A DNA stretch of 48,511 nt from the IMG/VR virus record IMGVR_UViG_3300034024_000092, positions 1-48,511 of that record; one strand, written 5' to 3'. Shown here in pieces: positions 11,157-19,807 of this stretch. This DNA is from a virus. The notes below the pieces were generated by a model. That model had not been told where the DNA came from, did not search any database, and was given only the letters and a program-made list of their open reading frames with translations. The stretch's first letter is position 1; the number at the start of each line of letters is the position of its first letter. The translations under genes and the position numbers were made by a program.

Positions 11157-11184
11157 ACCATACTACGGTATTCCGTAGGCGCAA
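11157..11184 (-). promoter_or_regulatory. Leftward early promoter with operator in its spacer
   Basis: On the minus strand, TTGCGC (11184-11179) and TATGGT (11162-11157) are separated by 16 bases that are exactly the palindrome CTACGGAATACCGTAG (11163-11178). The predicted start of transcription is near 11150, just ahead of the ribosome binding site of the first operon gene. Binding to this operator should block the promoter. Confidence 0.65.
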
Positions 11185-11191
11185 CACCTTT

Positions 11192-11207
11192 CTACGACAT
11201 TCCGTAT
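11192..11207. promoter_or_regulatory. Second left operator
   Basis: CTACGACATTCCGTAT matches 13 of 16 bases of the perfect operator at 11163-11178 and lies 29 bp away, so about three helical turns, compatible with cooperative binding. Confidence 0.6.
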
Positions 11208-11303: not shown

Positions 11304-11564
11304 ATGGCCAGAAAGACGATCTACTGCGCTCAAGCGTTCTGGTTGCGAGGCGGCCGGCTAAAGGGTGGCGAGGTTCACCAGTTCCTAGACGCCGAGCGCG
11401 CTCGCGCAGGTGCCGAGGCTCTGATCACCGGCTCCGATGGCGTTGCCGTGTTCTCGGTCGAAGGTCATCCAGACGAAGATTTATGGGAGGAGCCGCGACT
11501 GATCGAGACGTTCGGAGCGGTGCCGGCGGTCCAGTCGGATCCGTGGCTGGATGACGTGGCCTGA
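11304..11564 (+). CDS. Hypothetical protein, moron-like
   Basis: An 86-aa protein with a good ribosome binding site (GGGAGAC) before ATG 11304. Features are IYCAQAFWLRGGRLKGGEV, ARAGAEALITGSDGVAVFSV and EDLWEEPRLIETFG. Similar small proteins are common in Caulobacterales and Sphingomonadales chromosomes and phages, with no known function. It is a single plus-strand gene between the left promoter and the convergent AlbA_2/HATPase gene, so it probably has its own promoter and could be expressed in the lysogen. Confidence 0.8.
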   Translation: MARKTIYCAQAFWLRGGRLKGGEVHQFLDAERARAGAEALITGSDGVAVFSVEGHPDEDLWEEPRLIETFGAVPAVQSDPWLDDVA

Positions 11565-11567
11565 CCG

Positions 11568-13052
11568 TCAGGGCTCATTTGCGGGGTTTTGCGGCCGGCG
11601 ATAGCAGGTGGTGAACTTTTCGGTGCCGGGAACCTGCTCGATCAGGCCGTTTTTGATCATGCGAGCGAAGATGCGCTTCATCACATAATCCGCCGTGATG
11701 TGCGTGACCTGGCGTGCCTGAGAATTCTTGATCGTCCCGTGCGCATCAACGAACTCAAGGATGGTTTCCTCCGGCGCGGCAAGGGGCTCGTGCTTGATCG
11801 TAACGAGAAAGCTGTTCTCTGATTGCTCGAGCACGGGCGCCTTTAGCCCGACCTCGTACATCCTTCGAAAGGCGGTGTTGAGGCCCTCGCCCACGTCCTT
11901 ATTCGGAGGGTCGGGGAACTTGTTGAGCATACGGACTATGGCACCGTTGCGGTGTGCCCGCTCTCGCAGCACATTGGCGAGCGTGACGTGCGCGGCGAGC
12001 CGACCGGGGCTTTGGACCTCTATACGGTTGTCGAAGATGCGAATGTGTACGTCGTCCGCGATGCTGTAGTCGCGGTGGATGAGGGCGTTGGTGACGATCT
12101 CGTGGATCGTCTCCTGCGGGTAGGTGATCGCCTCCAGTCCGCCATCAGTCATTCGAGGTATCTTCTCCACCTCTTCCACGGTCCGCGCGACGGCCTCGCG
12201 GATTTGCTCAATGAGCGGCCCCTCGACAGTGATCGGGTGGAAGGCGAGCGCGTCACGGAAGCCTTCAGCTTCTTTGGTTTTGTAACGATAAATCTTGACC
12301 CCGCAGTGCTTCGGCAGGTGTGCTTGGGGCAGATCACCAAAGAGCAGCAAGCCCGCAACTGTCGGCCTCCCGTCGCGAACAAGGGCCTGCTTGCGTAGCC
12401 AGTCCTCCGGCGCGGACTGCGGCACGACTTGCGACATAAACCGGCTGGTCACTTCGGATCCCGTGATCGTCGTCAGATCGATGTTCAGCAACTCTGTTTC
12501 GTAGGTTGCTACGCCCTTCGCGTACTCAAGCCTCCGCATGAGCTCCGGCGTGTTCTGAGCAATGGATTGGGCGCCGCGCCGAAGGTAGGCAGTCCCGTTC
12601 GAACAAACCGTCACCCGGTCGGTCTTGTTGATTATCGCGCGGAGCACCAGTCCGGGCTTGTTCGAACAGCTTAAGAATGCGTAGTCGAAGTAGGTCCCAA
12701 GCGGGAACGCCTGTTCGAACGCTTGGATGTGGCCGTTGGCGTCCTCCTGGCGCCTGAACCCGTCCCACTCGCGAGCGCCATCGCGATTCTCCGCAATGCC
12801 CACGTAGAGCTCGCCACCGTCAGCGTTCGCGAAGGCAGACAGGGTGCGCATGAGCTTGGCCGGCGCAACTTCGCGGCCTTTCAGCTCGTACGTCTGTGCT
12901 TCGTCCAACGCCATGATCAGAGCGGCTTCGTCGGGCGTGAGTTCGAACACCTCCAGCGAGGACTTAACACCATGTGTTCGAACAGGTCCGCTTGAAGCCT
13001 GTTCGAACACTTTTGCATCCGGGTGTTCGAACAGATCGGGCTGCTTGGTCAT
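11568..13052 (-). CDS. AlbA_2/Schlafen-type ATP-binding protein
   Basis: A 494-aa protein. Residues about 45-170 match the AlbA_2 (Schlafen-like, DNA/RNA-binding) domain: TYELKGREVAP then LSAFANADGGELYVGIAEN. Residues 307-350 carry an HATPase_c_4 signature: the N-box EIVTNALIHRDYS (Asn322) and FDNRIEVQSPGRL. About 434-490 look like a winged helix (TILEFVDAHGTIKNSQARQV). This is the COG2865 layout, known as predicted regulators, and related proteins occur among phage-defence candidates. It is third in the repressor operon, so probably lysogen-expressed. Its first 460 bp hold seven GTTCGAAC palindromes. Domain call strong; function unknown. Confidence 0.88.
   Translation of the reverse strand: MTKQPDLFEHPDAKVFEQASSGPVRTHGVKSSLEVFELTPDEAALIMALDEAQTYELKGREVAPAKLMRTLSAFANADGGELYVGIAENRDGAREWDGFRRQEDANGHIQAFEQAFPLGTYFDYAFLSCSNKPGLVLRAIINKTDRVTVCSNGTAYLRRGAQSIAQNTPELMRRLEYAKGVATYETELLNIDLTTITGSEVTSRFMSQVVPQSAPEDWLRKQALVRDGRPTVAGLLLFGDLPQAHLPKHCGVKIYRYKTKEAEGFRDALAFHPITVEGPLIEQIREAVARTVEEVEKIPRMTDGGLEAITYPQETIHEIVTNALIHRDYSIADDVHIRIFDNRIEVQSPGRLAAHVTLANVLRERAHRNGAIVRMLNKFPDPPNKDVGEGLNTAFRRMYEVGLKAPVLEQSENSFLVTIKHEPLAAPEETILEFVDAHGTIKNSQARQVTHITADYVMKRIFARMIKNGLIEQVPGTEKFTTCYRRPQNPANEP
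12597..13032. repeat. Seven dispersed GTTCGAAC palindromes
   Basis: Copies at 12597-12604, 12660-12667, 12713-12720, 12941-12948, 12976-12983, 13001-13008 and 13025-13032. Four are the full TGTTCGAACA. Relative to the codons they fall in three different frames (Phe-Glu four times, Cys-Ser-Asn twice, Val-Arg-Thr once), so the DNA and not the protein is conserved. I saw only two further copies in the whole window (17635-17642 and 18421-18428). Confidence 0.9.
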
Positions 13053-13071
13053 GGCTTCTCGAAATCGGCGC

Positions 13072-13473
13072 TCAGCGCGCCGCCGCTTGGCGCTCTAGCC
13101 GCGACAGCAGATCGCGCAACCCGTCCACGTGGGTCGAGACCATCTCGGCCGAATTTTCGATCTGCGCGGCACACTCGGCGACGGTGATGGGCCGGTTGCC
13201 CTGCTCCTGCGCAGCTTTGGCGAACAGCACCGACTCCACTCGCTGAGCCTCGGTCGTGAGGTGGTCCGCCCCAATGTCAGCGACGTCTTGGCGGGCCTTC
13301 AGCACATATGGATGCGCCGAGCCCCCGGGGTAGACCCGCGAGCAACGTCCAAGCGCCTCGGCCATGTCGCCGTAGCTGTCGATGATCCGGGTTAACTGCT
13401 GGTCGAGCAGCGCCTCAGCGTCTCTCTGGAGGGGCGTCTGCGTAGCGAGGACCAGAAGAAAAGCGAAGATCAC
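13072..13473 (-). CDS. Exported hypothetical protein
   Basis: A 133-aa protein with a short N-terminal hydrophobic stretch (MIFAFLLVLATQTPLQRDA), read as a signal peptide or anchor, followed by a helical domain with two cysteines (Cys44 in LGRCSRV, Cys101 in VAECAAQ) that could form a periplasmic disulfide. GTG start in a GTGA overlap with the repressor stop, so it is translated with the repressor in lysogens. A surface or superinfection role is possible but unproven. Confidence 0.72.
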   Translation of the reverse strand: MIFAFLLVLATQTPLQRDAEALLDQQLTRIIDSYGDMAEALGRCSRVYPGGSAHPYVLKARQDVADIGADHLTTEAQRVESVLFAKAAQEQGNRPITVAECAAQIENSAEMVSTHVDGLRDLLSRLERQAAAR

Positions 13474-13994
13474 GCGCGTTTCCTCTCTTTGACCGGGGTC
13501 GCAGAAGTCTCGAGTTTGGGTGTGGGTAACAGCGCCATATCGCGTCCGGCGGTATCCAGATCGTCAGGGGCATGATCAGAAACGAAACCCGTGCGGAGAC
13601 CCAATGCTGACGCAACCCGTCGGATCCATTTGTCGGACGGCGCGTCGGGCTGATTTTCCCAGAACTCTACCGTCGAGGCCGGCACTTCCAGGGCCTGTGC
13701 GAGCTCGTCAACAGTCTGCTCCCTGAACACTCGCCAAGCCTTAAGGTGGTTGGGCCGCGGCTCCGATCCAGGCGCTGCGCCAAATATATCTTCCACCGCA
13801 AGGTTGTAGGCGCCCGCGATCTTGGCTTCGTTCTCGCCACTCAGGCTGCCGGTGCGCTTACCCTTCGTCTCCACGACGTAAGAACGGATCGTATTGTAAT
13901 CGACCTTCGACGCCACGGCGACGAGGTTCATGTTGAGGCCGCTGGCTCTCATCCACGCGATGAAATTGTCGCGGCGTGCGTCTTGAAGTGACAT
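13470..13994 (-). CDS. Prophage repressor with two HTH domains
   Basis: A 174-aa protein. Residues about 9-72 form one XRE/CI-like HTH (FIAWMRASGLNMNLVAVASK, then YNTIRSYVV). Residues about 84-136 form a second (FREQTVDELAQALEVPASTV, then RRVASALGL). There is no C-terminal S24 peptidase domain, so the usual RecA-stimulated self-cleavage should not operate. I chose ATG 13994; the longer start at 14063 would place operators inside the gene. It has no clear ribosome binding site and may be leaderless, as lambda cI is from PRM. It heads an operon with two possible conversion genes. Confidence 0.83.
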   Translation of the reverse strand: MSLQDARRDNFIAWMRASGLNMNLVAVASKVDYNTIRSYVVETKGKRTGSLSGENEAKIAGAYNLAVEDIFGAAPGSEPRPNHLKAWRVFREQTVDELAQALEVPASTVEFWENQPDAPSDKWIRRVASALGLRTGFVSDHAPDDLDTAGRDMALLPTPKLETSATPVKERKRA

Positions 13995-14015
13995 CGCCGC
14001 GCATACTGAAGCGTG

Positions 14016-14079
14016 ATACGGATTCTCGTAACCGCGAAGTTCCGTAGTTCCCCTTGCCAGCATCTACGGAATATCGTAG
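14016..14079. promoter_or_regulatory. Right operator region (three sites)
   Basis: The best site, CTACGGAATATCGTAG (14064-14079), matches the left operator at 15 of 16 bases in reverse orientation. Two weaker sites lie at 14032-14047 (right half TTCCGTAG, 11/16) and 14016-14031 (TACG-N6-CGTA, 10/16). They fill the gap between the divergent repressor and cro-like genes. A GANTC (GATTC, 14021-14025) lies in the last site. Confidence 0.7.
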
Positions 14080-14088: not shown

Positions 14089-14301
14089 ATGGACGTCGAC
14101 AGCATCATCAGGGCCATCGAACAAGCCGCCGACGAGCAGGGGCTTCCTGAGCTCTCGAAACGGTCGGGGATCCCGTACACAACGTTGATGGACTGGCGTC
14201 GACACGGTTGGCGCCCTCGCGCCGTGCAGGTGTTGGAGCGCCTGGCCGAGGCCGCCAAGCCGGCCAACGACGACCCCCTTCCCCATTCGGAGGCGGCGTA
14301 G
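14089..14301 (+). CDS. Cro-like HTH regulator
   Basis: A 70-aa protein with a YdaS/Cro-type HTH: IIRAIEQAADEQGLPELSKR then IPYTTLMDWRRHGWRPRAV. It diverges from the repressor across the operator region, the classical place for Cro, and should repress the lysogenic promoter during lytic growth. The start at ATG 14089 lacks a ribosome binding site, consistent with a leaderless transcript. Confidence 0.83.
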   Translation: MDVDSIIRAIEQAADEQGLPELSKRSGIPYTTLMDWRRHGWRPRAVQVLERLAEAAKPANDDPLPHSEAA

Positions 14302-17627: not shown

Positions 17628-17797
17628 CCAGACTGTTCGAACCCGTCCGTTACGCCGTGGCCCGCTGGCGTCTGCGCCGGGTCATGCGCCCAATCGACCG
17701 GCAGATCAGCGCTGCCCGCCGGAAGCACAAGCCGGTTGCGCACCTGATGGCGGCGAAGCGCGCCGTGATCCACTCTGCTTTGGCGAGCCGACCATGA
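17624..17797 (+). CDS. Small very basic protein (57 aa)
   Basis: MTRLFEPVRYAVARWRLRR starts a 57-aa protein very rich in Arg and Lys, with VMRPIDRQISAARRKHKPV. Possibly nucleic-acid binding. ATGA overlaps at both ends. A GTTCGAAC palindrome (17635-17642) lies at codons 4-7. Confidence 0.7.
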   Translation: MTRLFEPVRYAVARWRLRRVMRPIDRQISAARRKHKPVAHLMAAKRAVIHSALASRP

Positions 17798-18332: not shown

Positions 18333-19807
18333 TGGAGCCGGAAGCCGAAGCCCCCTCGCTGCCCCATAACCTTGAAGCCGAGCAGGCCCTGCTGGGCGCG
18401 CTGATGTTCGACAACGCCGTGTTCGAACGCCTGCCCGACCGGTTGCGCGGCGCCCACTTCTACGAGCCGTTCCATCAGCGCCTGTTCGACCAGATCGCCG
18501 GGTCGATCACCAAGGGCATGATCGCCGAGCCGATGCTGCTGCGCGACGCCTTCGGCGAGGACCCGGCCTTCGAAGCTTTCGGGGGGTCGGTCTACTTGTT
18601 CGATCTCGTGGACCGGGCGCCGCCTTCCCGCAATGCGCCCGACTATGGCCGGGCCATCTACGACCAGGCGATCCGCCGCGACCTGATCCGCATCAGCGGG
18701 GACATCATCAAGGATGCGACCGATCCGACCATCACCGGCATGGAGCACGTCGGGAAGGCGGAGGCGGCGCTGTTCACCCTCGCTGAAACCGGTGAGCAGA
18801 CAAAGGCCGTGGCGACCTTCTCCGAAGCGCTGGAGGGCGCCCTGGCCCAGGCGGAGGCCGCTTACCGCCGGGATGGGCAACTCACCGGCCTGGCGAGCAA
18901 ACTGACGGACCTGGACCAGAAGCTGGGCGGTCTGCACCCCTCCGACCTCCTGATCGTCGCGGGACGGCCTTCCATGGGCAAGACTGCGCTGGCGACGAAC
19001 ATCGCCTTCAACGTCGCCAAGGCATGGCATGGCGAACCCGATCCCGACGCGCCGGGCGGCATGCGGACCATCGCCGGCGGCCGGGTATTTTTCGGCTCGC
19101 TTGAGATGTCCAAAGAGCAGCTGGCGCTCCGCATCATCTCGGACGCTGCGAGCGTGTCGAACGACCGTATCCGCAAAGGGCTGATCGACGGAGCCGAGTT
19201 CCGGCGCATGAAGGACGCCCAGGCCGAGCTCCAGTCGATCCCCCTGCATATCGACGAGACCGGCGGCATCCACATCGCCAAGCTCTGCGCCCGCGCTAGG
19301 CGCCACCACAGGAAGCACGGTCTCGATCTGATCGTGGTGGATTACCTCCAGCTCATCACCACGGATGGCGGAAAGGGCTCCAATCGCGTCCAGGAGGTCA
19401 GCCAGATCACCGGGGCGCTCAAGGCCCTGGCCAAGGAGCTGAACGTCCCGATCCTCGCGCTTTCTCAGCTCAGCCGGCAGGTCGAGAGCCGGGACGACAA
19501 GCGGCCGATGCTGTCCGACCTGCGAGAGTCCGGCTCAATCGAGCAGGACGCCGACTGCGTCATGTTCGTCTACCGCGAGAGCTACTACCTCAGCCGCACC
19601 GAGCCCAAACCCGGCACTGACGCTCACCTGAAGTGGATCGAGGCCATGCAGGCCTGCCAGGGCCAGGCCGAGGTCATCATCGGAAAGCAGCGCCACGGCC
19701 CCATCGGCACAGTGCGCCTGTCCTTTCATGAAGACACCACCCGCTTCGGCAACTTGGCCCGCGACAGCGACTATCCCGAGGCCCGTCTTCCCTATGGTGA
19801 CGCATGA
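18329..19807 (+). CDS. dnaB: Replicative DNA helicase (DnaB family)
   Basis: A 492-aa helicase. The N-terminal domain (about 1-110) begins LPHNLEAEQALLGALMFDN, as in DnaB. The RecA-like domain has Walker A GRPSMGKT (212-219), the SLEMSKEQLALR motif and Walker B LIVVDYLQLI (Asp338). SQLSRQVESRDDKRP and DLRESGSIEQDADCVMF are further DnaB motifs. It would unwind the phage replication fork and needs loading, perhaps by the DUF1376 protein encoded next. Two ATGs (18329, 18332) are possible; the first makes an ATGA overlap. Confidence 0.96.
   Translation: MMEPEAEAPSLPHNLEAEQALLGALMFDNAVFERLPDRLRGAHFYEPFHQRLFDQIAGSITKGMIAEPMLLRDAFGEDPAFEAFGGSVYLFDLVDRAPPSRNAPDYGRAIYDQAIRRDLIRISGDIIKDATDPTITGMEHVGKAEAALFTLAETGEQTKAVATFSEALEGALAQAEAAYRRDGQLTGLASKLTDLDQKLGGLHPSDLLIVAGRPSMGKTALATNIAFNVAKAWHGEPDPDAPGGMRTIAGGRVFFGSLEMSKEQLALRIISDAASVSNDRIRKGLIDGAEFRRMKDAQAELQSIPLHIDETGGIHIAKLCARARRHHRKHGLDLIVVDYLQLITTDGGKGSNRVQEVSQITGALKALAKELNVPILALSQLSRQVESRDDKRPMLSDLRESGSIEQDADCVMFVYRESYYLSRTEPKPGTDAHLKWIEAMQACQGQAEVIIGKQRHGPIGTVRLSFHEDTTRFGNLARDSDYPEARLPYGDA

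What the first reader, a model, noticed from the sequence alone, without database searches (positions are those of the whole stretch)
11568..13473. Lysogen-expressed pair behind the repressor: exported protein plus AlbA_2/HATPase protein
Repressor, signal-peptide protein and Schlafen-like ATPase are in one minus-strand operon. Genes expressed with the repressor commonly protect the lysogen. AlbA_2 plus HATPase proteins are known as predicted regulators and appear among defence candidates. The pairing with a small periplasmic protein could be a new two-part exclusion system.
Basis: inference. Interest (0 to 1): 0.75.

Follow-up and report, generated by a model that had tools for sequence, protein, structure and literature searches.

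The report
Prophage antiviral-type nuclease carrying own switch
A dormant virus of bacteria carries, right behind its repressor gene, a gene for a Schlafen-type RNA-cutting protein that probably guards the host cell against other viruses; the start of that gene is studded with seven copies of one short palindrome that look like a built-in DNA on/off or self-recognition element.

Summary
Repressor (13470-14063), a small exported-type protein (13072-13473, start overlapping the repressor stop) and an AlbA_2/HATPase/winged-helix protein (11568-13052) form one minus-strand operon. They lie between matching repressor operators (14064-14079; 11163-11178 and 11192-11207), the position of lambda rexAB. 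The large protein is a bacterial Schlafen: both Pfam domains, conserved acidic triad, fold matches to SLFN11/13/14. Viral relatives sit behind a repressor in six of eight contexts, so lysogen expression and abortive infection are plausible. The 'two-part exclusion system' is not supported: no relative of the exported protein was found, and relatives of the Schlafen have other neighbours or none. In related Caulobacteraceae prophages the repressor is repeatedly coupled to an unrelated exported protein, without any Schlafen. The two genes look like stacked cargo. It follows this gene into phages with other repressors and operators. I read it as a binding array for the protein itself: autoregulation, or self-immunity as in BstA-aba. 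Function is inferred, not shown.

The parts
11568..13052 (-). Schlafen-type protein, 494 aa: disordered tail (res 1-31), AlbA_2 (51-164), GHKL/HATPase_c_4 (334-419), winged helix (about 427-486)
   Evidence: Pfam; PHROG 12156 E 4e-69; AlphaFold2; Foldseek to 3lmm, SLFN11, SLFN13, SLFN14; E51, D/E56 and K58 in 37/37 homologues, E/D88 in 34/37
12940..13033 (.). Primary palindrome array: four GTTCGAAC cores at 13025, 13001, 12976, 12941 (three are full TGTTCGAACA); spacing 24, 25, 35 bp; codons 7-38 of the Schlafen gene
   Evidence: first three sites identical in L001 (30/30 bases inside, 13/40 outside)
12596..12721 (.). Three further GTTCGAAC cores at 12713, 12660, 12597 inside the AlbA_2-coding part
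   Evidence: the 12713 site is also in L001 at +335
13072..13473 (-). Small protein, 133 aa, hydrophobic N-terminus then helices, two cysteines; probably exported; translationally coupled to the repressor by a GTGA overlap
   Evidence: no homologue found; no Pfam family above its cut-off
13470..14063 (-). Phage repressor, probably starting at ATG 13994 (174 aa); second HTH domain is related to repressors of Caulobacteraceae prophages
14064..14079 (.). OR-type operator CTACGGAATATCGTAG between the repressor and the divergent Cro-like gene
11163..11178 (.). OL-type operator CTACGGAATACCGTAG (minus strand), upstream of leftward genes
11192..11207 (.). Second OL-type operator (ATACGGAATGTCGTAG)
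14089..14301 (+). Cro-like HTH protein, 70 aa, divergent from the repressor
   Evidence: (weak HTH matches), position
11304..11564 (+). Conserved 86-aa ORF, convergent with the Schlafen gene; marks the end of the cargo slot in related prophages
   Evidence: related ORFs in L001 (8665-9033), L123, L124, L129; no Pfam family

Best explanation
The operon is a lysogen-expressed cargo slot in the position of lambda rexAB. Its main effector is a bacterial Schlafen: an RNase-type AlbA_2 domain coupled to a GHKL ATPase module and a DNA-binding winged helix. It is normally held inactive; infection by another phage triggers RNA (probably tRNA) cleavage and stops the infection. The GTTCGAAC array at the start of its gene is most likely the binding site of the protein's own winged helix. 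Bound there, the protein limits its own expression and/or is held inactive by replicating copies of its own prophage. The exported protein is a separate, second cargo gene of the repressor operon, most likely acting at the envelope. Shown here: operon layout, operators, domains, conserved acidic residues, recurrent position behind repressors, DNA-level conservation of the array. Inferred: RNase activity, trigger, binding of the array by this protein, defence.
For: Operon and operators. Schlafen class; triad spacing E51-x4-E56 as in rat SLFN13 E205/E210 (PMC5862951). Position behind repressors: L001 with its own operators, L084-L087. Defence role of the class: PMC12839542; growth-arresting TrlG of the same architecture, PMC7554251. 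Array: 7 copies against 0.65 expected in the window; none of 20,000 protein-preserving shuffles reached 7, and 4 of 20,000 reached L001's four. It is kept where repressor, operators and partner were exchanged. In L034 it lies 241-169 bases upstream of the gene, in another genome region. A scan for palindrome pairs in 2.9 million viral contigs gave 30 stretches, two of which are Schlafen loci; the other 28 held no relative.
Against: Most relatives lack this palindrome: the cellular ones, the repressor-adjacent viral ones L084-L087, and L036, the closest relative of L034. In window and L001 the array is inside the coding sequence, an unusual place for an operator. RNase activity, infection trigger and binding of the array by the protein are untested. 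The defence result for bacterial Schlafens was read only through a paper that cites a preprint.
Confidence: 0.5

Rival explanations
1. The protein is a transcription regulator rather than a defence nuclease. The winged helix binds the palindromes, ATP binding switches it, and the array is an ordinary autoregulatory operator.
For: The class was long annotated as a predicted regulator (own knowledge). In a beta/gamma-proteobacterial subgroup (L053-L056) ACCGGT-type inverted sites lie around the promoter region of the gene, and in L034 the GTTCGAAC sites are in the upstream intergenic region.
Against: The acidic triad is kept in nearly all relatives, which a pure regulator would not need. In window and L001 the sites lie inside the coding sequence of a gene that probably has no promoter of its own (in the window, a 19 bp gap to the gene upstream).
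Confidence: 0.22
2. Exported protein and Schlafen form one dedicated two-part exclusion system: a periplasmic sensor and a cytoplasmic effector.
For: They are adjacent in one operon. L001 also has two small membrane-type ORFs between repressor and Schlafen.
Against: L001's ORFs are unrelated to the window's protein; L084-L087 have none. Exported proteins coupled to repressors occur without a Schlafen in L124, L125, L128, L129, L143.
Confidence: 0.08
3. The array is a site for another protein (host or phage), or works as RNA through hairpins between neighbouring palindromes in the mRNA.
For: Neighbouring copies pair over 12-13 bp, and in L001 the flanks of sites 2 and 3 changed together. The 5' region folds better than shuffles (z -3.2 window, -3.4 L001, -2.3 L034).
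Against: Palindromes give hairpins in any case. All copies keep the same 8-bp core, which pairing alone would not require, and some are 50-230 bases apart.
Confidence: 0.2

Closest known systems
Bacterial Schlafen proteins (AlbA_2 + minimal histidine-kinase-like ATPase + wHTH; PMC12839542, citing bioRxiv 10.1101/2025.07.24.666596)
   Same: Same domain order and acidic triad; related fold to animal SLFN11/13/14 nuclease domains
   Different: Lies in a prophage repressor operon and carries a palindrome array within its own coding sequence
BstA with its aba element (PMC8585504)
   Same: Prophage gene behind the repressor; a short repeat-bearing DNA element at the very start of the gene
   Different: BstA is a KilA-N-type protein; aba is 63 bp with CCCGCC direct repeats; no self-immunity has been shown here
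Lambda RexA/RexB and the RexAB-type system of Pseudomonas putida (PMC12894663)
   Same: Operon position between repressor and OL (lambda); one soluble and one envelope-type protein
   Different: No sequence relation found; the exported protein has one short N-terminal hydrophobic stretch, not a multi-pass membrane protein
Sie2009/Ltp-type lysogeny-module exclusion proteins (own knowledge)
   Same: Small exported protein gene next to the repressor
   Different: No lipobox in the window's protein; sequence relation not tested directly; function unknown
TrlG of Photorhabdus (PMC7554251)
   Same: AlbA_2 + HATPase_c_4 protein whose loss relieves growth restriction at high temperature
   Different: Chromosomal three-gene operon, not a prophage repressor operon

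Membership tests
Bacterial Schlafen (AlbA_2-GHKL-wHTH) | SLFN_AlbA_2 and HATPase_c_4 domains | tested here: met
   both above Pfam cut-offs
Bacterial Schlafen (AlbA_2-GHKL-wHTH) | C-terminal winged helix | tested here: met
   helices 427-438, 443-450, 455-467 and a strand 483-485 in the model; not confirmed by a separate domain hit
Bacterial Schlafen (AlbA_2-GHKL-wHTH) | Acidic catalytic triad of Schlafen nucleases | tested here: met
   E51 37/37, D/E56 37/37, E/D88 34/37; spacing of the first two compared with PMC5862951; the third position is my assignment from sequence
Bacterial Schlafen (AlbA_2-GHKL-wHTH) | RNA cleavage and anti-phage activity | not testable with these tools
   needs the bench
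BstA-aba | KilA-N-like domain | tested here: not met
   one search gives only AlbA_2 and HATPase_c_4
BstA-aba | Gene behind a prophage repressor | tested here: met
   also L084-L087
BstA-aba | DNA element at the gene start giving self-immunity | tested here: inconclusive
   repeat-bearing DNA-level element present; immunity not testable
Lambda RexAB | Between cI/OR and OL, expressed with the repressor | tested here: met
   (position only; expression not tested)
Lambda RexAB | RexA and RexB sequence families | tested here: not met
   no such match in Pfam or PHROGs
Lysogeny-module exclusion lipoproteins (Ltp/Sie2009) | Signal peptide with lipobox or membrane anchor | tested here: not met
   no cysteine near the end of the hydrophobic stretch (sequence)

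The most novel reading that the evidence does not exclude
The GTTCGAAC array is a self-recognition element: when the prophage replicates, its many copies of the array bind the Schlafen's winged helix and keep the RNase off, so the phage escapes its own abortive-infection protein. This would be a second, unrelated invention of the BstA-aba principle, built from a Schlafen nuclease.
Probability: 0.22. Interest if true: 0.82.

Novelty: new variant of a known kind. Interest (0 to 1): 0.6.

Why it matters
How bacterial Schlafens are kept silent and triggered is, as far as I know, open, and so, beyond BstA, is how a prophage survives its own abortive-infection gene. A conserved DNA array inside the gene gives a direct, cheap test of both: binding by the protein, and loss of control when the palindromes are changed synonymously. 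The wider pattern, Schlafens in the rex position of several phage groups and a coupled, ever-changing exported protein behind the repressor in Caulobacteraceae prophages, points to a cargo slot worth mining for defence genes.

Tried and rejected
T-arm mimicry: GTTCGAAC equals tRNA positions 53-60, tempting for a tRNase, but none of the seven copies is followed by the C that would close the T stem (sequence). Repressor operator: the repressor's sites are a different motif, and in L001 the operators are different again while the array stays. Genome-wide word: only two more exact copies in the window, 17635 and 18421. Structural relatives of the exported protein: none credible in the PDB. A common operator in all relatives: no, only in four viral members (window, L001, L034; core TTCGAA only in L002), and a different ACCGGT type in L053-L056; a per-genome test on 6-mer palindromes near the start was mostly not significant. 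The direct repeats CTGAAGA near the start of L085 are not kept in L086, so no second array is claimed. Sigma-70-type promoters: none found, the host may use another type.

Full report
What is there. The window is an IMG/VR virus record. The repressor stop and the GTG start of the 133-aa protein overlap by four bases; 19 bp separate that gene from the 494-aa gene. A palindrome of the type CTACGGAATAYCGTAG occurs at 14064-14079, between repressor and a divergent Cro-like gene, and at 11163-11178 and 11192-11207, upstream of leftward genes that include a RecT-like annealing protein and an exonuclease VIII relative. These are the only places in 48.5 kb (0.07 matches expected). The operon therefore lies between OR- and OL-like sites, where lambda has rexAB.

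The large protein. Pfam finds SLFN_AlbA_2 (residues 51-164) and HATPase_c_4 (334-419), both above cut-off. A 35-sequence AlphaFold2 model (mean pLDDT 86) shows a disordered tail of 31 residues and a C-terminal winged-helix-like region. Foldseek finds 3lmm, a bacterial protein, then SLFN11, SLFN14 and SLFN13 among the next matches. E51, D/E56 and K58 are kept in 37 of 37 sequences and E/D88 in 34; the first two have the five-residue step of the E205/E210 pair essential in rat SLFN13 (PMC5862951). [quoted passage not shown] TrlG of the same architecture restricts growth at high temperature (PMC7554251).

Context of relatives. Nine viral records, the window included, held such a gene. Of the eight with a readable upstream region, six have it behind a phage repressor: window, L001, L084, L085, L086, L087. 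L085, L086 and L087 carry closely related Schlafens behind different repressors, so they are not fully independent. In L001 the repressor and its operators (GTTTGCATATGCCGAACAT, three at OR and two at OL) are different from the window's, and two unrelated small membrane-type ORFs separate repressor and Schlafen. In L084-L087 nothing does. L034 has the gene near what look like late genes and L002 behind a transposase. Cellular relatives mostly sit beside unrelated chromosomal genes.

The exported protein. No relative was found in phage records, viral contigs or 299 genomes. Prophages related to the window's early region are common in the family of Brevundimonas denitrificans (26 of 388 genomes), which makes Caulobacteraceae the likely host family. 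In twelve such regions read, the slot behind the repressor is variable. In L124, L125, L128, L129 and, from a second batch, L143, an exported protein or lipoprotein starts inside the repressor's stop codon exactly as in the window. The four compared (L124, L125, L129, L143) share no significant similarity with the window's protein, although the window's repressor is related to those of L124 and L128 (41-43% over the second HTH domain) and of L129 (33%). One region carries a SocA/Panacea-domain gene (L128). No Schlafen was seen in the slots read. The coupling of repressor and exported protein is thus a recurrent feature of its own, and pairing with the Schlafen looks incidental.

The palindrome array. 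GTTCGAAC occurs nine times in the window, seven of them within 12597-13032, the first 456 bases of the Schlafen gene; 0.65 were expected in the whole window and no shuffle reached nine. The copies lie in all three codon frames. Shuffling synonymous codons while keeping the protein never gave seven in 20,000 trials; L001's four copies were reached in 4 of 20,000. The first three sites, at +20, +44 and +69, are identical in L001 over 30 of 30 bases while the spacers match at 13 of 40. They lie in codons of the disordered tail, where the protein can bear them. L034, only 52% identical, has the same core three times, plus one near match, at -241 to -169, spaced 22-25 bp. L002 has core TTCGAA at -5, +18, +83 and +107; three in the first 120 coding bases were reached in 49 of 20,000 shuffles. 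These four lie in one supported set of nine rows (97/88), but L035 and L036 in that set lack arrays. A blind scan of viral contigs for palindrome pairs returned 30 stretches, two of them Schlafen loci and the rest without any relative.

Mechanism. The array goes with the Schlafen gene and not with the repressor, so the simplest binder is the Schlafen's own winged helix. Two uses fit: autoregulation, and self-immunity as with aba, a 63-bp DNA element at the start of bstA, another abortive-infection gene behind prophage repressors (PMC8585504). An RNA-level role is not excluded. The evidence does not decide among these, and nothing here tests activity.

Verdict. Observation confirmed; interpretation partly supported. 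New variant of a known kind: a Schlafen in the rex position with an intragenic palindrome array.

Noticed in passing
L124, L125, L126, L128, L129, L143; window 13470-13473: In Caulobacteraceae prophages the repressor stop codon repeatedly overlaps the start of a gene for an exported protein or lipoprotein of mostly unrelated sequence; these repressors often end in (R/K)TGT(D/E/N)G.
   Followed up: partly
L053-L056, about -95 to +40 of the gene: Beta/gamma-proteobacterial relatives have ACCGGT-type inverted sites around the promoter region of the Schlafen gene, a possible second operator type in this family.
   Followed up: partly
window 17635-17642 and 18421-18428: Two further exact GTTCGAAC copies, each single; near chance level.
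   Followed up: no
window 11304-11564: Conserved small ORF of unknown function, convergent with the cargo, marks the end of the slot in related prophages.
   Followed up: partly
L128 2869-3923 (oriented as the window): SocA/Panacea-domain antitoxin-like gene and a 123-aa neighbour in the same cargo slot behind the repressor.
   Followed up: partly
L088 (Gordonia phage Nymphadora gp38), L089 (Mycobacterium phage Squirty gp31): Distant Schlafens (27-28% identity) annotated as DNA helicase lie a few kb from the immunity repressor, next to the integrase region.
   Followed up: partly
L085 about +22 to +68 of the gene: Three CTGAAGA direct repeats near the gene start, partly kept in L087, not in L086; unexplained.
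   Followed up: no
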